Shown: in pieces, positions 9,991-33,816 of the stretch
Layout: each line of letters opens with the position of its first letter
Position numbering within the stretch: position 1 is the stretch's first letter
Assembly (NCBI GenBank): GCA_021801525.1
Contig: JAJYXW010000089.1
Coordinates: forward strand, 1 to 34,466
DNA: 34,466 bases
Direction: 5' to 3'
Source of the DNA: Actinomycetes bacterium
GTDB taxonomy: Bacteria > Actinomycetota > Acidimicrobiia > Acidimicrobiales > JAJYXR01
Translations under genes and position numbers: made by a program
The notes under the pieces: model-generated
Seen by the model: the letters and a program-made list of their open reading frames with translations, nothing else
What the model was told of the DNA's origin: nothing
Database searches by the model: none

Positions 9991-11001
9991 TCATCCGCAG
10001 ACGGAGCGAATGAGCTCAACGGCGTTGGTGCCGAGGACCCGGTCCACCTCCGTGCCGGTGAACCCTCTCTCCTGCAGCCGCTCCTCGATGGCGCCAAACT
10101 GACCGTAATCGTCCATGACCGGTTGGTAGTTCGCGTCCATGTCGGTGCCGATCCCGACGTGGTCGACGCCGATGACGTCGACCAACCGGATGATCTCGTC
10201 GACGAAGTCCTCGAAGGTACGTGCCGAGACGCCGGCCGGCCAGGCGCCGACGAGTCCGCCGGCAGATGCGACCATTGCAGCGTGCTCGGCGCTCACCAGC
10301 CGGGCGTTGTCGCGCCCGTCACCATTGAGGTGGGTGTGGGAGATCATGACTGGTGCGCTCGACTCTTCCAGCACTCCGAGGGTGGTCTCATACGTGGCAT
10401 GTGCGAGGTCGATTAGCAGCCCGATCCGGTTCATCTCTCGGACGAGCTTCCGCCCGGCTTGGGTGAGGCCGCCATGGGCAGGCTGCTCGGTCTGCAGGTC
10501 GCCGAATTCGTTCTGCCGGTAGTGGAGCAAGGTGATCGACCGGACACCTGCGTCATGGCACTCATCCAGGCGTTCCAAGTGGTCTTCCACGAAGTCGGCA
10601 CCTTCACAGGTGATGAACAGCGCAGTGGTCCCGGCATCGTGGGCGACGATGATGTCGTCGGCACTGCGGACAATGGCCATCTTGTGGCGGCGGGCGAGGT
10701 TGCTCAGGCCAGTGAGTTGACGACGATGGTCGGCGTATGCTTCGCCTTCCTGGAACGGCCTGACGGCACGGAGCCCGCCGTCGCCGTTCAATCCGAGCGC
10801 CCGGAGGTCGGCAACTGTGGCGAAGCTGGCTGCGGCGATGCCGGCGTTCTTGATCTCGGCGACCGATGCGTCGCAGGTGTCTGCCCCGAGGACTTGCGTC
10901 AGGAGGTCGTCGGCGTTGAGCCCAGCCAGGAAACACTTGCCTGGATGCGCGTGTAGGTCGACCCAAGGGCCGTGCGTTCTTTGGGAAGTCGATTCAGTCA
11001 A
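9991..11001 (-). CDS. Membrane dipeptidase-like metallohydrolase (peptidase M19)
   Basis: The 336-residue protein has the M19/renal dipeptidase signatures: DLHAHPG (metal-binding HxH, about residue 15), CEGADFVEDHLERL (bridging Glu region), LIDLAHATYETTLGVLEES, PVMISHTHLNGDGRDNA (metal His) and VGIGTDMDANY near the C-terminus. Family members hydrolyse dipeptides or related amide bonds with two Zn ions. The only plausible start is TTG at 11001, which overlaps the 3' end of the addA-like gene by 8 nt (TTGACTGA), so translation is probably coupled. No signal peptide is seen, so it is likely cytoplasmic. Confidence 0.85.
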   Translation of the reverse strand: MTESTSQRTHGPWVDLHAHPGKCFLAGLNADDLLTQVLGADTCDASVAEIKNAGIAAASFATVADLRALGLNGDGGLRAVRPFQEGEAYADHRRQLTGLSNLARRHKMAIVRSADDIIVAHDAGTTALFITCEGADFVEDHLERLDECHDAGVRSITLLHYRQNEFGDLQTEQPAHGGLTQAGRKLVREMNRIGLLIDLAHATYETTLGVLEESSAPVMISHTHLNGDGRDNARLVSAEHAAMVASAGGLVGAWPAGVSARTFEDFVDEIIRLVDVIGVDHVGIGTDMDANYQPVMDDYGQFGAIEERLQERGFTGTEVDRVLGTNAVELIRSVCG

Positions 11002-14000
11002 GTTCGCATTCCAGTGTCGAACCTGCCATCTCTGCCAGGGAGGCGGCCTCGGCCATGGCGGCAGGGAGATCTACGAGCTCTGTTTCCACAGGTTTCGCGC
11101 CAGCGAGCTGGATGATCACGGCCTTCTTCGCCCTCAGCCCGGTCGAAGCCTCGAGAGCGAGCGCGTAGAGAGCAAGCTGCAATCGGTGAGCTGGTGGCAT
11201 GGAGGCCGGCTCGGGCTCGGCGTCAGTCTTGAAGTCGGCGATCACGAGCTCGCCACCGTCCTCGACGACGAGGTCGACAACTCCCTCGATCAGGAGATCT
11301 GCGTTGCCAATGGCCAGGGGACCTCCGACTAACTTGGACGCTCCGGCCTCCTCAGCGGCGCCGGACGTGCCGGATGTGCCGGACGTGCCGGACGTGCCGG
11401 ACGTGCCGGACGTGCCGGACGTGCCGGATGAGGTGCCTTGCGCGTCGGGGCGGGAGAGCGGATGGGTGTGCAAGACTGCCGACACCGGCATCTCGTGCCA
11501 GTAACGCCTAGTGGCGGCTAGGCGGACAGTAGGGCTCGAGAGCGCGTTGGCGATCATGGCACCCACCTTCCCTGCCTGCTCGGGAACACCGTTGATGTCG
11601 CTCCATCGGCGTGCCAGCGTGGCTGCTCCCACCCCGGTTACGGTATCGCGGCCGGTGGCAAGGTCGACGACTGCCAGAGCCTGGTGAACTGCTCGCCCGA
11701 TCTGCAGCGCTGACGCTCCCGTGTCTCCGTGGCGATGGCGAGGCCCCCCACCAGACCGGCCATTTGGCGGGCCATTTGGCGGGCCATTAGGTGGGCGTTC
11801 ACGAGAGCCACCCGGCGGGGTGCCGGCCGCTGGATCGCCATCCAGCTCTGCTAGCTGTGTGGGGCTCACAACGGGGTCGTTGGCGGATCGCATGATCAAG
11901 TCGGACCGCTCGGCTGTCCACGCTTCGCGCGCTGCGAGCCAAGCGTCGCCCACGGCCCGCCACGTTCCACCTTCGGCGCCGGCGGTGCCGGATCCATCCG
12001 CCTCGGCCGGCTGGGCGCTCTCCGGTTGCTGATCTGCTGGGTTACCGGTGGGTTTGCTTACCGGTTTGCCGGTGGGGGCATCGAGCTCGAGAGGCGGGCT
12101 GGTGTCGAGATGCTCGGGACGCTCGGGATGCTGCCATGCGGCTGGGCCCCAGAGGCCCCTGCATTCCTCGCAAGCAGCGAGGATGCGGCTGGCCATAGAG
12201 GTATCGGGGGCGCTCGGGCTACCCTGCTTTCGGTGCACGCTCACTAGCAGGTGGTCGCGCGCGCGGGTGGCTGCGACGTACAAAAGGCGGTCGCGCTCGA
12301 GATCCTGCTGAATGGCTTCGTCCTGCCATGCGGCGTCGTAGCCTGGTGTCGCGAAGCTGCCCACTCTCACCTCCGGGCGACCGGAAGGGGCCCAGATGAT
12401 CGCACGATTCTGGCGACCCGGGGTGCGCTGCTCCAGCCCTGCCAGCACCACGATCGGGAACTCGAGGCCCTTGGACCCGTGGATGGTGAGGACCCGGACG
12501 GCGTCGTCGTCGGGTTCCGGAGGACCGGTCGGGGTGCCCCGCCCGCCTGCCTCCTCCTGAGCTGCAGCCCAGCCAAGGAAATCGGCAAGGGAGCCGCCGT
12601 TAGCATCGTCGAACATGCGCGCCTGCTCTTGCAGCCAGCGGAGGCGTTGCCAGCGGTCGCGAGGCCTCGGGTGGACGGTCGCCAGCTCGAAAGCGCCGAG
12701 CTCTCTCATTGCCGCCATCACGATCTCCGACGGTTCTTCCGTCCAGCGCCGCCGGTGGAGGTCGACTAGGAGCGACATGGCAGCGCCTACCGGGTGGTGG
12801 GGCGCGACCTGTGAAGGGGTGCTCGCACGCGGGTCGAAGCTGCCACCTGCCGCATGCCACGAGACGAGATCGTCGTCGCCACATCCGAGGAGAGGCGTCC
12901 TCAGGGCGCCGAGCACTGATATCGCATCGGAGGGGTTGTCTGCCGCGCGAAGGATCATCAGGATGTCGCGGATCTCGGGAGAGCCCCAGAGCAAGCTCGC
13001 ACCTTCCAGCCGGTAAGGCACGCCATGCTCCTCGAAGCTGATCTCCAGCTCCCTAAGAGCTGTTCGTGCTGGCAGCAGGACGGCGATGTCGCCGAAACGA
13101 GCCCGCCTCTCCTGCCCGCAGTCTTCGACCGTCCAGCCTTCGTCGAGCACGGCGAGCGCCGCATGAGCTACATCGTGGGCTGATTCGCGTCGCACGGCGC
13201 TCATCGAAGCGTCGTGAGCGGAGCCGAACAGCACTACGGCTCCACCCCTGGCGTCCGCGAGCTCGTCGCGAGCGGGGGCGAGATCGGCGTGGGAAGCCTG
13301 CGCCTGCTCCTGGGCGGTCGTTTCGAAAACGATCTTGAAGACGGCGTTTGTCCAGGCGAGCACGGAAGGCACCGCGCGGTGGTTGTGCCTCAGCACGACA
13401 GGTTCGCCGAAGGACTTCCCTGCCGCTTGGTAGGTGGCTACGTCGGCACGGCGGAAACGGTAGATGGACTGCCTGGGATCTCCAACGGCAAAGATGCGTC
13501 CCGGCTCGGACGCACCGAGCGCCGACACGATGTCCTGACGCCGCGCGTCCTGGTGCTGCGCGTCCTGCGGCAGGATATGCGGAGGCTCTGCTATGGATGC
13601 GAGCAGCTCGGCTTGGACGGGATCCGTGTCCTGGAACTCATCGACGAGAACCCGCCTGTAGTGACTTGCGACCCGGTCACGGGCCTCGGGGCTGTGGCGA
13701 AGCAGTTCTCTCGACCAGACCAGCAGATCGTGGAAACCGAGCCGGCCCTCGCGGCGCCGCTCCTCGGCGCAGGCAAGGGCGAAACCTCCCAAGCGCTGTA
13801 CCAGAAAAGCGAGCACCCGCTGACGGACTCCCTCCAGGATCGAGTTGCACGCGTCCTCGGCGTCCTGGCATGCGTCCCTGGCCAAAGAGATGGTGCCGGA
13901 CCATGCCTCCTTCCGTCCAAGGCGCGATGCAGAGAGCTTCGGGGCGTGAGCCAGCATTGTCAGCACTGCCAGCTCGGCATGGTCTTCATCCTCCCCGGTG

Positions 14001-14815
14001 ATGCCCAAAGCCTCCTCGAGCTCGCTCGCGAAGGGCTCGAGCGATCGGATGTGCGCCAGGAGCTTGTCGTCTGGATCGGTGCAGCTCGCACAGGCATCGG
14101 CAGCGCTCCGGAGTGCATCCAGGACTGCTGCTGCACGTACGGGAGCGAAGGGCTCGGTGGCGGGACCTCCCACCCGAGCGGTGTCGAGCGGGCCTTCGGG
14201 CGCGGTGTCGAGAAGGCGGTCCCAGTCGTGGTCCAAGGCATGGGCGATCGCCTGTATGTCTCTAAGCCTGAGTCCGGTGGCGAAACCTCTGGACAGGGCC
14301 CTCTCCGCCACCGGATCGGCGAGCAACTCCTCGATGAACTTTGAGAGTCGCTTCTCGAAGTCGGCTTTCCCCTCAGCCTCGTCGAGGACCTCGAACGCCG
14401 CGGGTACGCCCGCTTCGAGGAAGTTGTCCACGAGTATCCGCCTCGCGAACCCATGGATAGTGGAAATTGTGGCCTCGTCCACCTCGACGGCAACCTGGCC
14501 ACCATTTTCCCCGCTGCTTCCCCCGCTGCTTCCCCCGGCTGCCGGCAGACGGGTCTCCCTGCCCTTTCCCAGTGCATCACGGACCCGCTCGCGGAGCTCT
14601 GCAGCCGCAGCCTCGGTGAATGTTATGGCTGCGATGTCGCGCATGGTGATCCCGTCACTTCCGGCCAACGACACGATCCGTTCGACGAGGGACGAAGTCT
14701 TGCCCGTGCCAGCGCCAGCCTCGACGAAGAGGTTCCGCTCGAGATCCTGTGCTATCCGGGCCCGGCTCTCGGCGTCAGGTCCCGTGCCGTCCACGTGTGT
14801 GGCCTGAGGTTTCAT
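10994..14815 (-). CDS. addA: AddA/RecB-like UvrD helicase-nuclease
   Basis: The 1273-residue protein is a superfamily 1A helicase with a C-terminal nuclease. Visible motifs in order: AGAGTGKTSSLV (Walker A, about residue 38), AAITFTEAAAAELRERV (Ia), ISTIHGFARRIL, VLVDEFQDTDPVQ (II), FAVGDPRQSIYRFR (III), VVLRHNHRAVPSVL (IV), VLTIHGSKGLEFPIVVLAG (V), LLYVAATRARDHLLVS (VI), then GRAVHQAL and VIADFKTDAE (PD-(D/E)XK nuclease). With the AddB-like gene upstream it should resect double-strand breaks for RecA recombination. I chose ATG 14815; the frame extends to 14839, but that part lies at the IscB element's right flank. The ATG overlaps the IscB stop (ATGA). SGT repeats (9-nt units) sit in a linker before the nuclease motif. 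Confidence 0.9.
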   Translation of the reverse strand: MKPQATHVDGTGPDAESRARIAQDLERNLFVEAGAGTGKTSSLVERIVSLAGSDGITMRDIAAITFTEAAAAELRERVRDALGKGRETRLPAAGGSSGGSSGENGGQVAVEVDEATISTIHGFARRILVDNFLEAGVPAAFEVLDEAEGKADFEKRLSKFIEELLADPVAERALSRGFATGLRLRDIQAIAHALDHDWDRLLDTAPEGPLDTARVGGPATEPFAPVRAAAVLDALRSAADACASCTDPDDKLLAHIRSLEPFASELEEALGITGEDEDHAELAVLTMLAHAPKLSASRLGRKEAWSGTISLARDACQDAEDACNSILEGVRQRVLAFLVQRLGGFALACAEERRREGRLGFHDLLVWSRELLRHSPEARDRVASHYRRVLVDEFQDTDPVQAELLASIAEPPHILPQDAQHQDARRQDIVSALGASEPGRIFAVGDPRQSIYRFRRADVATYQAAGKSFGEPVVLRHNHRAVPSVLAWTNAVFKIVFETTAQEQAQASHADLAPARDELADARGGAVVLFGSAHDASMSAVRRESAHDVAHAALAVLDEGWTVEDCGQERRARFGDIAVLLPARTALRELEISFEEHGVPYRLEGASLLWGSPEIRDILMILRAADNPSDAISVLGALRTPLLGCGDDDLVSWHAAGGSFDPRASTPSQVAPHHPVGAAMSLLVDLHRRRWTEEPSEIVMAAMRELGAFELATVHPRPRDRWQRLRWLQEQARMFDDANGGSLADFLGWAAAQEEAGGRGTPTGPPEPDDDAVRVLTIHGSKGLEFPIVVLAGLEQRTPGRQNRAIIWAPSGRPEVRVGSFATPGYDAAWQDEAIQQDLERDRLLYVAATRARDHLLVSVHRKQGSPSAPDTSMASRILAACEECRGLWGPAAWQHPERPEHLDTSPPLELDAPTGKPVSKPTGNPADQQPESAQPAEADGSGTAGAEGGTWRAVGDAWLAAREAWTAERSDLIMRSANDPVVSPTQLAELDGDPAAGTPPGGSRERPPNGPPNGPPNGRSGGGPRHRHGDTGASALQIGRAVHQALAVVDLATGRDTVTGVGAATLARRWSDINGVPEQAGKVGAMIANALSSPTVRLAATRRYWHEMPVSAVLHTHPLSRPDAQGTSSGTSGTSGTSGTSGTSGTSGTSGAAEEAGASKLVGGPLAIGNADLLIEGVVDLVVEDGGELVIADFKTDAEPEPASMPPAHRLQLALYALALEASTGLRAKKAVIIQLAGAKPVETELVDLPAAMAEAASLAEMAGSTLECELD
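11361..11430. repeat. 9-nt tandem repeats in the addA-like gene
   Basis: About 7-8 copies of gtgccggac (two single-base variants), coding (SGT)n on the minus strand in the nuclease-domain region. A smaller 12-nt repeat, ggccatttggcg, lies at about 11757-11790 in the same gene. Confidence 0.9.
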
Positions 14816-16560
14816 CGAGAATGGGTGTGGGACGAGCAACCCCTGGCTTCAGCCGTGGGAGGGATAGTCCCACTCGGGCCAAAGGCCAGAGCCTCCTCCC
14901 GGTGCTCGTATCCCCAGCCGTCCCCACGCTGCAACAGCGTGCAGTGGCGGTAACTGATGCCTTGCACGGTGCCTCCTTTCGCCTTGATGTTGAAACTGCC
15001 ACTCGAACGCACGGCGACCCGCCCGACGTAGGTCCCCGCCTTCTTGGCACTTGGAACGACTGCCCGCACATGGTCGCCGGTGGCGAACCCGCGGTGGACC
15101 TTCCCGCGTGGCAGGTGAAGGCGCGGGAAGCCGTAGGCATCGGGCCGCGTACGGGCATAGCAGCCCCGGCCGGTCGCCAACGCTTCGAGCACTGTTCCTG
15201 GGAGTGAGGCAACACCGCCGGCATCTCCCGCATCTCCCGCATCTCCCACACAGAGTGCATCGAGTGTGTGGGACTTGGGAACGCTGAACCGGCTGCGGTT
15301 CCACTTGGTGCGCCCACCCGACCCGGTGAAGACAGGCAGTCCTGTGTCCTCCAGTTCCCGCCACAGCGCCCAGCGGGTCGCGTTCCCAGCTGCGGCGTCT
15401 TTGAGCGGCGCCTTCGCCTGGGCGAGTATCTGTGCCAACCGCTTGGGGTCCTTGGCGAGGAAGACCTCGACGGGAAGGCTGTCTTTGGCCTTGTTGCAGC
15501 CGGCGCAGGCGAGCGTGAGATTGGACACCCGGTTGGTTCCGCCACGCGCCTTTGGCCAGATGTGCTCCACCTGCAAGGACACACCCCTGATGTCGCAGTA
15601 GGCACACTCCCGTCCCCACTTCTCGAGCAGGTACTCACGCACCTCGTAGCCAGCCAAGGTGCCCTGGCTGTACTCGACACCGGTGATCTCCGGACTCTCC
15701 ATCTTCTGCATGTCGAAGCGCACGAGCTCTTGGTGAATGGCAGTGACCGGTGCCCACCTGCGCAGACGGATGACCACCGCCATCGTGGTGTCTACCCGGT
15801 GCTGAAGGCTTGGCGGGAGACGATGCCGGCGATAGCCGTTGTCCACGTAGCTCCGTGTACTTGCACACGGTCGGCAGTACCGGGCTCCATGCTTTGCGTT
15901 CTTCCCGCAGTTGGCACACGCCTCCGGGTGGCGGTTAGCGAAGCGGGGCGTCCTGTAGCGGAGGTTCGCAGTCCTGCGGCGGCGGCGGTAGGCAGAGCGC
16001 TGGCCCATGTGCTTGTGGATGAGCTCGCCACGGTGTGCAACCTCGAGCGACACGTGCCCGTGGCGTACATGCTTGTCGTCTACACGGAAGATCGACATTC
16101 CCGTGAACTTCGATCCCGGGTCGATGCCCAGCTCGACTCCGGGCACTTCTGACGTTGCTGCATCTCTGTCCACCAGGCGGATCACGAACGGGACCAGGCG
16201 GTGGACCCTGGCTCGTCTGGCGTGGAGCAACTTCCGGGCACGCGCCGGATTGCACGGCATGAGCGGGTGTCCGTGCTTGTCCAGTACGTTCACCCGCTGA
16301 GCCGTTATTGCTGGTGGAGCCGCAAGGCCCCGATCTTCCGCTTCGCCGGACGAGTCCGGCTCCGCGAAGTGACGCTGTACGGGAAGGTGATCCCGTACAG
16401 TCTCCCCTCGACCATGTTGCACGACAGTTGCCAGGTATCCCCGGCGTCCGCGCCCCGTTTCGCCCTTGCCCTCACGGTTGTCTGCTGACGCGGATTCCAG
16501 AGCAGGGGACTGAGGAAGCATCCCCTGGTGGGTCTTCTCGCTTTCGTGCAACGTAGACAT
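14812..16560 (-). CDS. iscB: IscB, RNA-guided HNH/RuvC nuclease of the OMEGA class
   Basis: The core (residues 90-582 from ATG 16560) is a full-length IscB. In order: PLMP domain (VNVLDKHGHPLMPCNPARARKLL), RuvC-I GIDPGSKFTG (Asp about 147), Arg-rich bridge helix (SAYRRRRRTANLRYR), a CX2CX10CX2C zinc-ribbon-like insertion, RuvC-II HQELVRFD, HNH (CAYC...VEHIWPKARGGTNRVSNL...CAGCNKAKD), RuvC-III SHTLDALCVG, and the target-adjacent-motif domain (GFATGDHVRAVVPSAKKAG...GSFNIKAKGGTVQGISY). All catalytic residues I can place are present. IscB cuts DNA guided by an omega RNA encoded just upstream. The start is uncertain: AAGGAGGTGAACAAG precedes ATG 16560 and gives an 89-residue extension, while GTG 16293 gives the usual 493-residue form. 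The stop overlaps the addA ATG. GDA repeats follow RuvC-III. Confidence 0.93.
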   Translation of the reverse strand: MSTLHESEKTHQGMLPQSPALESASADNREGKGETGRGRRGYLATVVQHGRGETVRDHLPVQRHFAEPDSSGEAEDRGLAAPPAITAQRVNVLDKHGHPLMPCNPARARKLLHARRARVHRLVPFVIRLVDRDAATSEVPGVELGIDPGSKFTGMSIFRVDDKHVRHGHVSLEVAHRGELIHKHMGQRSAYRRRRRTANLRYRTPRFANRHPEACANCGKNAKHGARYCRPCASTRSYVDNGYRRHRLPPSLQHRVDTTMAVVIRLRRWAPVTAIHQELVRFDMQKMESPEITGVEYSQGTLAGYEVREYLLEKWGRECAYCDIRGVSLQVEHIWPKARGGTNRVSNLTLACAGCNKAKDSLPVEVFLAKDPKRLAQILAQAKAPLKDAAAGNATRWALWRELEDTGLPVFTGSGGRTKWNRSRFSVPKSHTLDALCVGDAGDAGDAGGVASLPGTVLEALATGRGCYARTRPDAYGFPRLHLPRGKVHRGFATGDHVRAVVPSAKKAGTYVGRVAVRSSGSFNIKAKGGTVQGISYRHCTLLQRGDGWGYEHREEALAFGPSGTIPPTAEARGCSSHTHSR

Positions 16561-16653
16561 CTTGTTCACCTCCTTCTCGATGTCTTGGTCTGGTCAACCT
16601 GGGCTTACAGGACCTTCCTGCAAGCCCACGGCTTCAGCCGTGGGTGGTTGACC
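14841..16653 (-). mobile_element. IscB-bearing IS200/IS605-like (ISC) element
   Basis: The left end, on the minus strand, begins near 16653 with a 20-nt hairpin (CCCACGGC-TGAA-GCCGTGGG, 16625-16644). The right end has GTGGGA/TCCCAC (14855-14873) followed by GGCTGAAGCC (14845-14854), sharing CCCACGGCTGAAGCC with the left end in the same orientation. Subterminal hairpins and no long terminal inverted repeats are as expected for this superfamily. No TnpA gene lies inside, so it is non-autonomous. It sits precisely between the addB-like and addA-like genes. The exact ends, good to about 10 nt, are inferred. Confidence 0.75.
16293..16653 (-). ncRNA. Predicted omega RNA (guide scaffold) of IscB
   Basis: IscB guide RNAs are encoded between the element's left end and iscB, with the guide taken from flanking DNA at the 5' side. 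Here that interval is densely structured. GGTCAACC (16646-16653) pairs with GGTTGACC (16592-16599) and encloses two hairpins: 16625-16644 (8 bp) and 16601-16627 (12 bp, one G-U, 3-nt loop), which share three bases. Further down are CAGGGGA/TCCCCTG, a perfect 10-bp CTGTACGGGA/TCCCGTACAG stem (6-nt loop, about 16375-16400) and CCGGA/TCCGG inside CTTCG/CGAAG (about 16340-16370). The guide would come from the 3' end of the addB-like gene, above 16653. RNA ends are unknown. Confidence 0.6.
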
Positions 16654-19600
16654 CGGGCGTAACCGTTACGAGCGGACCTGCGACGACTATGCCTGCGAGC
16701 TCGTCGGGTACGGGCGCCTCGAGGACGTCCAGGGCAGGAGCTGCTCCTGGCGACTGGCGCTCGAGCGCCCAGCGCACGTCCCTGTCAGGTGGGCAGATAC
16801 TGTCGTAGGGGCAGCTGGAGCAGTTCTCGAAGGACTCCGCGCGCGGCTTTCCCGGGACGGCAGGGAAGACCCCTTCGGTCGTAGCGGCAAGTATGCGTCC
16901 GACGATTTCCCGGAAACGGTCGAGCACCGCCTCGGTGAGCGGGAGGTCATAGCTCGGGCTCGAGCGCTCGGTCGACAGGAGCCAGTATCGAGCCCTTATG
17001 CGGTCACCCGCTCCGAAGCGCCGGGCGGCAGCTAGAGCGTAGAGGGGAAGCTGCAGACGGGTGCCGTTCGCGACCGGATCGCGGAGCAGCTTGCGCAGAT
17101 CGTCCTGCCTACCCGTCTTATAGTCGCTCACTACGAGAGTGCCGTCGCTCGCGCGGTCCACACGGTCGGCTTTTCCTCGAAACTCGATCACTGATCCGTC
17201 GGCGAGAGCAACTTCGAGGGGAGCCGCCGCCCCGCCTGAGGCCGCCCCGCCTGAGGCCGCCCCGCCTGAGGCCGCCCCGCCTGAGGCGGGATCGTGGCCG
17301 GTAGCCCCAGCATCGCTGCCGTCGCCGTATCCGAAGCTGAGCTCTGCCGCTACGGGGTCGAGGACATCCTCCCGGAAGAAGCGCCTGAGATCGCGCCTCA
17401 TTGCGAAGCGGTCCAGCCGCCACATCAGCGGTATGCCGCCCACGCCGCGTGATGCCGCTTTCTCGAGGTGCTCCTCCGCAATGGCGAGTAGACGATCGAT
17501 CGAGGCAGGTGCGCCGTTCAAGCGCTCCGACACGTAGTCCTCGAGGATTGCGTGGACCACCGAGCCCTTCTCCCTGGGGTGCATCTGCCAGAGCTCCTCG
17601 GGGAGGTCGCGCGGGAGTATCCGAAGCACCCGCTCGAAGAGGTAACGGCGCGGGCAGGTTGCGTAGGCCTCGAGCCGAGTCGGGGAGACCACGAGCGCCG
17701 GAGCTGAAAGGCTGGGGTGCCTCCCCACGAGCCCGTCGAAGCGCGTCAAGTCATTCGACTTCCCGGCGCGCGCTGCCTCTACGGCGGCCGGGAGCAGTGG
17801 GCACCTCGCTCCAAGCGCCGCGTAGCGAGGCGAGCTGCCCGTGGCAGCTTGGTTGGCGAGATCTCCGAGGTCGCGTTCGAAGAGTGAAGCAGCCAAGGAG
17901 GTGTCCATGACCGAAGCTGTGAAGGACGGTGCCACCGAGCGAGTTGCCGATGCTGATGCCTCTTCGGCCCAGCGCGACAGGGTGTTCTCACGCCCCGTGC
18001 GCGGTTCGGAGCGCGGCCAGGTTGCCGAGCAAGCGGCTCCTCCTGCCGCGATGGCGTGCATGAAGGCCAGCCGCTCCTCCGCGATGCGTGCCGCGCGGCT
18101 TCTGAGGGCTCCCGAGGATGCGAGGGAGCACGTGTCATCTGGGATGAGTGGGTTTTCGCCGATCTCCCCGGGGACCTGGGACTCGCAGAGCCCGATTGCC
18201 ACGGCGGCCTCGAAATGCATGCCCCGGGCTGCCGAGAACGGAGCAACGAAGACGCCTTCGCCGTAGCTCCGCCCAGGGCTCGCTTCGGAGCGCGAAGCGA
18301 GCTCGGTGATGAGGGCCTGGGTGAATACCCGGAAGTCGGCACCCTGCGACACGCGGTCGAGCTCTGCAAGGTCCGACAGGACACGGCGCACCTCCTCGCC
18401 GGCCTCGAGCTCCCTCGTCGCGACATATCCGGCTGACAATGCGACTCCAGGCCCGCTGAGATTCACAGGTCGGTGCGCAGGTTGGCCTGCCGGGACAACG
18501 TAGCCGGCCAGCACCTCCAGTGGCAGGTATCGCTCCAGAAGTCCCGAGGACCATTCGGCCCAAGATGCCCACGAGCGCGTGCCTCCTCGCATCGCGCCAT
18601 CTGCGGCACTGGCGCGCTGTGCCAGCTCTTCGACAAACCCGAGGAGCCGGCGAGCCTGCATTTGGATGGAGCCCTCTGCTGACCCAGCCGCCGCCCCGCG
18701 TGCCGCCCAATCTGCTGACCCAGCCGCCGCCCTAGCCGGCCATGTGGCGACGAGGCGCTCGAGCTTCGCGATCCATTGGCCAGCGCCGCGCACGATGCCT
18801 GCGCGCGCAGAGAGCATGTCCCACGCGCTCGACGGTACGGGGGTCATCTCGGCGCCCTCGACTATCGGTGCCGAGGAGAGCCAGCGTATGAGCTCGGCTC
18901 GCCCCCAATCGCCGCCGATCAGGCGGAGCAGGGCGACGAGGGTCCGAGCCGTGAGGCTGCGGGACAGCTCGCGCTGAGCCGGCCCGCAGCCTGGGATCCC
19001 CGCTCCGGCCAGCTCCTGGCGGAGGATCCTCGCGTAGCGCTGCCCGCCAGGGTGGAGCACGGCCTGCCTCCATAGCGGGATGCCGTCGGCGCATCGGGCG
19101 ATCACCTTGCGGAGCGCCAGCCGGACTTCCTCCTCGGGGTCGCTGCATTCCACTACGCAGTCGAGGGTGGGCTCGACGATCCTGCAGCGAGAGGCTCTCT
19201 CGACGCGCCGGTAGGTGTCCGGGTAGGTGTCCGGGTAGGTGTCCCGGACGAGCGATCGGTCCCCGAGCAGGCGTGATAGAAGCTCGCTCTGGCGAGGCGA
19301 CATCGGACCGGGGTCGGACACCACTACGGCGCCAAGCTGTCTCGAAAGGCAACCCCCACTCCCAACTGCCAGATGGCCATCGCCGGGCGCCATCGCCGGA
19401 TCCTGGTTGGCTGCAGCCTCGATGGCTGCCTCCTCAATACCGGGACCGTCGACGTAGCCCGCGTCGTCGAGAAGAGACCGTGCCTGTCGAAGAAGCCTGG
19501 CCAGGCTCCCGGTCATGGAGTCGAGGCCAGCGATGAGATCGAGCTCGTCCTCGCTGCAGCGGCCGAGCTCCGCCAGAGCGTGCCGGAGGGCCGCGAAGGA

Positions 19601-20140
19601 GTGCTCGTCGTGAACCATGGCGCCAACTTGGCCTCCGGCGTCGATGGCAGCGGATCGAGCAGCCTCGGCCTCAACATGTGCGCCGGCCCGACGCTTGCCC
19701 CGAGAGGTGACGAGCGGCGTGCCGAGCATGGCTGCGGCGTCCGCCAAGGTCGCGAATGTCACGTTCGCGCTGCCACGAGGTGCAATGGCGCCGCGTTGGC
19801 GTTCCGCTTCGTGCTGGTGCCGCTTCTTCGGTGCTTCGTCCTTGCCTGTGCCCTTGCCGCCGGGCGGCACTCCGCGAGCGAGGTTCCTCGCCCCGGCGAT
19901 GGCAGCTATGTGGGATGGCACGATCACCGTGACACGCGCTAGAGGGTCTCCGCCCTTGGCTTCGGCCACTTGCCGCACGAGCTCAGCGGTGCTCACCGCC
20001 ACGGGCGTCAGGTCGCGGGCTGTGTCGCGGGCTGTGTCGCGGGCTGTGTCGCGGGCTGTGTCGCGGGCTGTGTCGCGGGCTGTGTCGCGGGCTGTGTCGC
20101 GGGCTGTGTCGCGGGCTACGGGGTTGGATCGTTCCACCAT
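16634..20140 (-). CDS. addB: AddB-like subunit of a helicase-nuclease
   Basis: The 1168-residue protein has an inactivated-helicase-like N-terminal half without a Walker A motif (VTVIVPSHIAAIAGARNLA replaces it), a middle with FVAPFSAARGMHFEAAVAIGLCE, and a C-terminal PD-(D/E)XK nuclease (SVVHAILEDYV, FRGKADRVD, LVVSDYKTGR). One Cys in YATCPRRYLFERVLRI and three in CSSCPYDSIC match the AddB iron-sulfur cluster pattern. It should partner the AddA-like protein to resect DNA ends. ATG 20140 is followed by nine ARDT repeats. Other repeat tracts are DTYP (19211-19246) and ASGGA (17226-17285). The last residues (STTHG) and the TGA come from the IscB element's left end, so the native C-terminus has been replaced by a few residues. 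AdnA-type naming is an alternative. Confidence 0.85.
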   Translation of the reverse strand: MVERSNPVARDTARDTARDTARDTARDTARDTARDTARDTARDLTPVAVSTAELVRQVAEAKGGDPLARVTVIVPSHIAAIAGARNLARGVPPGGKGTGKDEAPKKRHQHEAERQRGAIAPRGSANVTFATLADAAAMLGTPLVTSRGKRRAGAHVEAEAARSAAIDAGGQVGAMVHDEHSFAALRHALAELGRCSEDELDLIAGLDSMTGSLARLLRQARSLLDDAGYVDGPGIEEAAIEAAANQDPAMAPGDGHLAVGSGGCLSRQLGAVVVSDPGPMSPRQSELLSRLLGDRSLVRDTYPDTYPDTYRRVERASRCRIVEPTLDCVVECSDPEEEVRLALRKVIARCADGIPLWRQAVLHPGGQRYARILRQELAGAGIPGCGPAQRELSRSLTARTLVALLRLIGGDWGRAELIRWLSSAPIVEGAEMTPVPSSAWDMLSARAGIVRGAGQWIAKLERLVATWPARAAAGSADWAARGAAAGSAEGSIQMQARRLLGFVEELAQRASAADGAMRGGTRSWASWAEWSSGLLERYLPLEVLAGYVVPAGQPAHRPVNLSGPGVALSAGYVATRELEAGEEVRRVLSDLAELDRVSQGADFRVFTQALITELASRSEASPGRSYGEGVFVAPFSAARGMHFEAAVAIGLCESQVPGEIGENPLIPDDTCSLASSGALRSRAARIAEERLAFMHAIAAGGAACSATWPRSEPRTGRENTLSRWAEEASASATRSVAPSFTASVMDTSLAASLFERDLGDLANQAATGSSPRYAALGARCPLLPAAVEAARAGKSNDLTRFDGLVGRHPSLSAPALVVSPTRLEAYATCPRRYLFERVLRILPRDLPEELWQMHPREKGSVVHAILEDYVSERLNGAPASIDRLLAIAEEHLEKAASRGVGGIPLMWRLDRFAMRRDLRRFFREDVLDPVAAELSFGYGDGSDAGATGHDPASGGAASGGAASGGAASGGAAAPLEVALADGSVIEFRGKADRVDRASDGTLVVSDYKTGRQDDLRKLLRDPVANGTRLQLPLYALAAARRFGAGDRIRARYWLLSTERSSPSYDLPLTEAVLDRFREIVGRILAATTEGVFPAVPGKPRAESFENCSSCPYDSICPPDRDVRWALERQSPGAAPALDVLEAPVPDELAGIVVAGPLVTVTPGSTTHG
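17226..17285. repeat. Four exact 15-nt tandem copies in addB-like gene
   Basis: gccgccccgcctgag is repeated four times without change, coding ASGGA on the minus strand, in a loop just before the PD-(D/E)XK metal-binding motif. Confidence 0.92.
20012..20119. repeat. Nine 12-nt tandem copies at the addB-like N-terminus
   Basis: gtcgcgggctgt recurs at exact 12-nt spacing from 20012 to 20108 and codes (ARDT)n beginning about eight residues after the start ATG. Near-identical copies suggest recent expansion. Confidence 0.93.
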
Positions 20141-33734: not shown

Positions 33735-33816
33735 GGGTCGGTGCCCGAGCGGCCAAAGGGAGCAGACTGTAAATCTGCCGGCACAGCCTACGGGGGTTCG
33801 AATCCCTCCCGGCCCA
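33735..33816 (+). tRNA. tRNA-Tyr(GUA)
   Basis: An 82-nt class II tRNA with a long variable arm. The acceptor GGGTCGG pairs with CCGGCCC (one G-U), followed by discriminator A33816; CCA is not encoded. The anticodon stem GCAGA/TCTGC holds loop CTGTAAA, giving anticodon GTA (33769-33771). The T-arm is GGGGG-TTCGAAT-CCCTC. Its 3' part overlaps the end of the integrase gene on the other strand. Confidence 0.95.
33788..33816. other. Likely attachment site core in the tRNA-Tyr 3' end
   Basis: The integrase stop codon (33788-33790) and last codons fall inside the tRNA's variable/T-arm region, the usual att core of tRNA-targeting tyrosine integrases. The second att copy would be outside the window to the right. 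Confidence 0.6.

What the first reader, a model, noticed from the sequence alone, without database searches (positions are those of the whole stretch)
14812..16660. IscB nuclease element stitched into an AddAB-like operon
Seen: the element lies exactly between the addB-like and addA-like genes, same strand. The addB-like TGA (16634-16636) is in the loop of the element's left-end hairpin, so the insertion supplies the stop and the last few residues. The IscB TGA (14812-14814) overlaps the addA ATG (ATGA). Both host genes stay intact. Inference: IscB is now transcribed, and perhaps translationally coupled, with the machine that resects double-strand breaks. IscB-type nucleases are thought to restore their elements by cutting the empty site and triggering homologous repair, so co-expression with the resection complex is a suggestive arrangement, and domestication is possible.
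Basis: partly seen in the sequence, partly recalled or inferred. Interest (0 to 1): 0.7.

Follow-up and report, generated by a model that had tools for sequence, protein, structure and literature searches.

The report
IscB transposon at an addB-addA junction
A known type of mobile element, carrying an RNA-guided cutting enzyme (IscB) and its guide RNA, has landed on the four letters ATGA where two DNA-repair genes overlap; this is its usual kind of landing site and it leaves both genes intact, so the arrangement looks like a harmless insertion and not a repair machine that has adopted a nuclease.

Summary
An intact IscB element (HEARO/omegaRNA plus IscB ORF, 1,837 bp, window 16652 to 14816, minus strand) sits between addB-like and addA-like genes. 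Joining the flanks gives ...GTTACGCCCGG|ATGAAACC..., in which addB ends on the TGA of the ATGA that starts addA. Nine of ten junctions read in relatives have this same ATGA or GTGA overlap, with no element. All 30 related copies with both ends placed abut ATGA; in multi-copy genomes, near-identical copies with different flanks show independently that ATGA is the target. The frame from that ATG is open for at least 60 codons in 24/30 cases (34% for control ATGAs). In several clades, including this one, IscB has no stop of its own and ends on the target's TGA, so the stop/start overlap is remade. Co-transcription and translational coupling with addA are plausible but untested. Domestication, or a special link to AddAB, is not supported: the element is rare (5 of 397 genomes of the order), absent from every other addBA junction seen, and found at many unrelated genes. 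Loose end: 4 of about 14 sites in this clade adjoin repair or recombination genes; none of about 30 elsewhere do. New member of a known kind.

The parts
14816..16652 (-). whole IscB/HEARO element, 1,837 bp (left end GTCAACCACC at 16652, right end ...CATTCTCG at 14816)
   Evidence: end consensus and flank switch in related copies
14812..14815 (-). target site ATGA: start codon of addA, stop codon of IscB, and (in the joined empty site) the former stop codon of addB; also the expected TAM position
   Evidence: NTGA TAM of DtIsrB in PMC9581776
16395..16652 (-). HEARO / omegaRNA scaffold
   Evidence: RF02033 112.5 bits, full model 1-211; folding z-score -4.5
16653..16668 (-). inferred 16-nt guide TAACGGTTACGCCCGG = 3' end of addB coding sequence
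   Evidence: position by analogy with IscB omegaRNA, whose guide lies 5' of the scaffold (PMC9640706); coordinates
14812..16293 (-). IscB nuclease, core ORF with stop (GTG start at MNVLDKHGHPLMPC); the longer open frame up to 16569 runs through the omegaRNA and is probably not coding
   Evidence: codon-position test
16627..16642 (-). left-end hairpin whose loop carries the TGA (16636-16634) now used by addB
   Evidence: sequence
14840..14859 (-). right-end imperfect hairpin CCCACGGCTGAAGCCAGGGG
   Evidence: sequence
16634..20140 (-). AddB-like protein (PD-(D/E)XK nuclease, Cys motif near the C terminus); inferred native end ...VTVTPG*, now ...VTVTPGSTTHG*
   Evidence: PDDEXK_1 E 1e-39
10994..14815 (-). 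AddA-like helicase-nuclease
   Evidence: UvrD + PDDEXK_1; best NCBIfam addA_Gpos 225.9 bits, below its cut-off; best solved structure 3u44, AddAB subunit A

Best explanation
An ordinary, intact, TnpA-less IscB/HEARO (OMEGA) mobile element has inserted at its family's target tetranucleotide ATGA. Here that ATGA was the 4-base stop/start overlap of addB and addA. Shown: the boundaries, the joined empty site, the same kind of overlap unoccupied in relatives, the recurrence of ATGA and of gene starts at other copies. Inferred: the omegaRNA, transcribed through the end of addB, carries the last ~16 nt of addB as guide, so the nuclease would cut an unoccupied addB|ATGA junction (target plus TAM) on a sister or incoming chromosome and spare the occupied one (GTCA follows the guide there instead of ATGA); repair from the occupied copy would restore the element. 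Also inferred: because the clade's IscB reads through its right end onto the target TGA, translation of addA stays coupled to the ORF before it (now IscB), which together with selection against harmful insertions explains why this site is tolerated.
For: HEARO and IscB assignments. Ends and target. Empty sites: ATGA in L034, L036, L041, L045 (same family as the window's genome) and L160; GTGA in L029, L030, L031 and L161. 24/30 copies directly precede an open frame of >=60 codons from the ATG, against 33.8% of 947 control ATGAs (binomial 3e-7); 9/30 also have >=60 open codons running up to the TGA, against 4.8% (7e-6). Stop/start overlaps elsewhere supported by family searches on both sides: ruvC|ruvA, comM|dprA, rseB|rseC; sugar kinase|PLP enzyme is firm on the kinase side and weak on the other. 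IscB ends on the target TGA in 14/30 copies and 1 nt into the ATG (TGATG) in 2 more. Mobility: identical copies at two sites in G048; many partial or decayed copies in G034. TAM fit: NTGA for DtIsrB.
Against: No strain-level empty site was found, so the empty sequence is inferred by joining flanks and by comparison with other genera and families. No TnpA with the element's ends was found: Y1 transposases occur in the genome (two hits), but of these only the locus L182 was read, and it showed no convincing match to the element's ends. The TAM of this particular clade has not been measured. For single copies the ATGA boundary was picked with the motif in mind; only multi-copy genomes (G337, G048) define it independently. 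The 24/30 figure pools related copies, and 11 come from one genome.
Confidence: 0.88

Rival explanations
1. Domesticated IscB: the nuclease has become a working part of the AddAB operon (for example a regulated break-maker or a defence nuclease) and is kept for that.
For: Catalytic motifs are intact, single copy in the genome, same strand and overlapping the addA start; no terminator-like site between the genes on this strand.
Against: Absent from ten other addB-addA junctions; both element ends and the omegaRNA are intact; relatives carry the same element at unrelated genes and as recent identical duplicates; only 5 of 397 genomes of the order have any copy.
Confidence: 0.04
2. The element family in this clade favours, or survives best at, DNA repair/recombination operons, so that cutting and repair are expressed together.
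For: 4 of about 14 acidimicrobial sites adjoin such genes: addB|addA, ruvC|ruvA, comM|dprA and an ImuA'-like/Y-polymerase-like pair (NCBIfam ImuA' 59 bits, just under the cut-off of 65). With an assumed 2-3% background this gives about 1e-4 to 5e-4 (computed for 13 sites).
Against: Noticed after the fact; the background rate is assumed, and counting both neighbours weakens it; none of about 30 sites in other phyla were seen to adjoin such genes, judged mostly by eye from the downstream gene or by record annotation; overlapping gene pairs are enriched for subunits of complexes (PMC10666635), which can produce such hits.
Confidence: 0.07
3. Assembly chimera in a draft genome: the element was joined to the addAB contig by error.
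For: The genome is a draft of 193 contigs, and IscB elements are repeats that break assemblies (several relatives' copies lie at contig ends).
Against: Single copy in this genome; the flanks join to give exactly the kind of overlap relatives have, with addB in frame to the TGA and addA from the ATG, which a random join would not do.
Confidence: 0.01

Closest known systems
HEARO / IscB elements (OMEGA systems, IS200/IS605-like; RF02033, NCBIfam NF040563)
   Same: omegaRNA at the left end, IscB ORF after it, hairpin ends, no TnpA in the element (few HEARO nucleases are found with TnpA, PMC9755519), ATGA at the right junction, several copies per genome in some relatives
   Different: Nothing essential; the copy happens to lie in a stop/start overlap of a repair operon and its ORF stop is supplied by the target
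DtIsrB (OMEGA nickase, NTGA TAM; PMC9581776) and OgeuIscB (NNRR TAM; PMC9640706)
   Same: ATGA fits both TAM descriptions; the omegaRNA carries its guide 5' of the scaffold
   Different: IsrB lacks HNH; this protein has HNH and is only distantly like OgeuIscB (E 2e-17); its own TAM is unmeasured
AddAB helicase-nuclease (3u44 and related entries)
   Same: AddA-like UvrD helicase plus PD-(D/E)XK; AddB-like PD-(D/E)XK with a Cys motif
   Different: Both fall below the NCBIfam AddA/AddB cut-offs; a divergent actinobacterial branch

Membership tests
IscB (RNA-guided nuclease) | PLMP domain, split RuvC with inserted HNH, IscB equivalog model | tested here: met
   393.6 bits vs cut-off 175; RRXRR and HNH; RuvC and HNH motifs align with a solved IscB
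HEARO / OMEGA element | structured omegaRNA directly upstream of the ORF, starting at the element end | tested here: met
   RF02033, full-length match beginning exactly at the element's first base, 16652
HEARO / OMEGA element | insertion next to ATGA/GTGA-type target | tested here: met
   ATGA in this copy and in all 30 curated copies; defined independently only in multi-copy genomes. The original report of ATGA/GTGA (Weinberg 2009) is from memory; the paper was not held
IS200/IS605 transposon | Y1 transposase TnpA acting on the ends | tested here: inconclusive
   none inside the element; two Y1 hits elsewhere in the genome, the one read (L182) without convincing matching ends
OMEGA activity | RNA-guided cleavage of the empty site | not testable with these tools
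   needs biochemistry
AddAB | AddA: UvrD helicase + RecB-type nuclease; AddB: RecB-type nuclease, adjacent genes | tested here: inconclusive
   domains and order fit; NCBIfam AddA/AddB matches are below cut-off; AddB has no solved homologue by sequence search
Domesticated nuclease | conserved position in relatives, loss of mobility features | tested here: not met
   ten relatives empty; ends and omegaRNA intact

The most novel reading that the evidence does not exclude
These elements are built for silent insertion into operons: their target/TAM (ATGA) is the commonest stop/start overlap, the left end gives the upstream gene a quick stop in just that frame, and the nuclease ORF lacks a stop and ends on the target TGA, remaking the overlap so that the downstream gene stays translationally coupled.
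Probability: 0.25. Interest if true: 0.5.

Novelty: new member of a known kind. Interest (0 to 1): 0.3.

Why it matters
It gives a clean example of how an RNA-guided mobile nuclease can sit inside a repair operon at little apparent cost, and it suggests a simple, testable rule: an NTGA-type target places the element on start codons and stop/start overlaps, and in some clades the nuclease borrows its stop codon from the target. If IscB does cut the empty addB|addA junction, the element targets the locus of the very enzyme expected to process the break.

Tried and rejected
(1) OmegaRNA translated as an N-terminal extension of IscB (the frame is open from 16569, behind a strong Shine-Dalgarno-like AGGAGGTG): rejected, since substitutions in that stretch show little third-codon-position excess (0.35 against 0.55 in IscB). 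(2) A second target for the guide in the genome: only a 3-mismatch match to the guide+ATGA pattern on contig 52 (L190), with no evident gene boundary there, taken as chance. (3) A TnpA element sharing the ends: no convincing match in the seven Y1 loci compared. (4) Claim that the target-borne stop codon is adaptive: left open; by a rough hand count about 7 of some 22 lineages show it (+4 or +1), against my own estimate of 3-4 by chance, and the right-end stretch shows no coding signal. (5) Two Pfam scans of the ImuB-like protein gave nothing, the first with a wrong frame; NCBIfam gave Pol IV matches far below cut-off. (7) Weinberg 2009 could not be read. (8) The first search of AddA in 60 relatives failed on the server and was repeated with 30.

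Full report
What is there. On the minus strand the window reads addB-like (20140-16634), an IscB element (16652-14816) and addA-like (14815-10994). The element starts with GTCAACCACC, which is also the first base of a full-length HEARO/omegaRNA match (RF02033, 112.5 bits against a gathering score of 83), then carries an IscB ORF (393.6 bits to the IscB equivalog, cut-off 175) with the PLMP start, RuvC motifs and HNH in place, and ends ...CACACCCATTCTCG, directly before ATGA.

Boundaries and target. I lined up the ends of related elements. In Vreelandella (G337), copies that are near-identical up to ...CGCGCAAAACG share nothing after ATGA and nothing before GTCAAC; in G048 two copies are identical over all 1,800 bp and diverge at GTCAAC and after ATGA. 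ATGA is therefore the target. For single copies the boundary was placed with this motif in mind, so their 30/30 agreement is not independent evidence.

The empty site. Joining the flanks gives ...CTC GTA ACG GTT ACG CCC GG|A TGA AAC CTC: addB ends in TGA, and the ATG of addA overlaps it by four bases. Ten addB-addA junctions from relatives were readable; five have ATGA (L034, L036, L041, L045, L160), four GTGA (L029, L030, L031, L161) and one a longer overlap (L044), and none has an insertion. L045 is the only genome from the same family; L160 and L161 come from genomes that do carry IscB elsewhere. So the insertion separated an ancestral stop/start overlap. AddB gained five residues (STTHG) and a stop in the left-end hairpin loop; IscB took over addB's old stop; addA kept its start.

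Is the place special? Of 30 curated copies, 24 lie directly before an open frame of at least 60 codons starting with the ATG of ATGA (control 33.8% of 947 flanking ATGAs; 3e-7), and nine of the 30 have both that and an open frame running up to the TGA (control 4.8%; 7e-6). Family searches back ruvC|ruvA, comM|dprA and rseB|rseC as real overlapping pairs, and a sugar kinase|PLP-enzyme pair more weakly. Three of the nine (L113, L119, L144) look like chance open frames upstream by eye. Other copies precede genes read as a PAPS reductase (cysH), rplJ, thioredoxin and, by eye only, trmB, yicC, modA and others; on a Deinococcus plasmid a copy lies between parA and parB. One copy (L067) appears to lie inside a gene near its 3' end (my reading), and L050 has no gene at the site. 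The addB-addA site is thus one of many of its kind. Four-base ATGA/GTGA overlaps are the commonest arrangement of same-strand neighbours in H. volcanii, and ATGA in E. coli (PMC10666635), and the measured TAM of the related nickase DtIsrB is NTGA (PMC9581776). An ATGA target plus selection against harmful insertions is enough to explain the position.

Coupling. In 14 of 30 copies the IscB frame runs through the right end and stops on the target's TGA; in two more it stops at TGATG. This holds for most acidimicrobial copies, and for some from Nitrospirae, Schekmanbacteria and a proteobacterium, but not for Vreelandella or for the Pseudomonas plasmid copies read. It would keep addA translationally coupled, now to IscB. 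Whether that is a selected design is not shown: the right-end stretch has no codon-position signal, and the lineage count is only moderately above a rough chance estimate.

Mechanism (inferred). By analogy with studied IscBs (PMC9640706), the guide is the ~16 nt of addB just upstream of the element (TAACGGTTACGCCCGG, 16668-16653). An unoccupied chromosome presents this sequence followed by ATGA, the occupied one by GTCA. IscB would cut the former, and repair from the occupied copy would re-install the element. Apart from the occupied site itself, only a 3-mismatch match to guide+ATGA was found in the genome. No sigma-70-like promoter, and no terminator on this strand, was found around the element, so transcription from addB is the simplest assumption, untested.

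Domestication. Not supported: intact ends and omegaRNA, no conservation at the site, sporadic occurrence (3 of 296 genomes of the class, 5 of 397 of the order, the window's own genome counted), and recent movement in a relative.

Loose end. Among about 14 acidimicrobial insertion sites, four adjoin repair or recombination genes (addB|addA, ruvC|ruvA, comM|dprA, and an ImuA'-like gene followed by a Y-family-polymerase-like gene). With an assumed 2-3% background this is unlikely by chance, but it was noticed afterwards and was not seen in about 30 sites from other phyla. I record it and do not build on it.

Noticed in passing
L157 3' flank (G048 ruvC|ruvA), L049 (G330 comM|dprA), L156 (G331, before imuA'-like), window 14812-16652: Four of about 14 acidimicrobial IscB insertion sites adjoin DNA repair or recombination genes; none of about 30 sites in other phyla were seen to. 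Post hoc, background assumed.
   Followed up: partly
window 16293-16569: The IscB frame is open back through the omegaRNA, behind a strong Shine-Dalgarno-like AGGAGGTG; little codon-position signal, so probably not translated.
   Followed up: yes
window, N-terminal part of addB-like ORF (near 20100) and C-terminal part of addA-like ORF: In-frame short tandem repeats in coding genes (AddB TARDTARDTARD..., GGAASGGAASGGAA; AddA SGTSGTSGTSG; IscB GDAGDAGDAG).
   Followed up: no
L178 2243-3863: On a Deinococcus plasmid an IscB element lies between parA and parB, ahead of the parB start codon.
   Followed up: no
L018 / L066 at 697: In G034/G343 an IscB right end directly precedes the start codon of ribosomal protein L10 (rplJ).
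   Followed up: partly
L131, L133, L134, L136 (cyanobacterium G342): Cyanobacterial copies abut GTGAGG, ATGAGG or GTGCGC by eye, so the target motif may be looser in that group.
   Followed up: no
window 33735-33816: tRNA gene on the plus strand.
   Followed up: no
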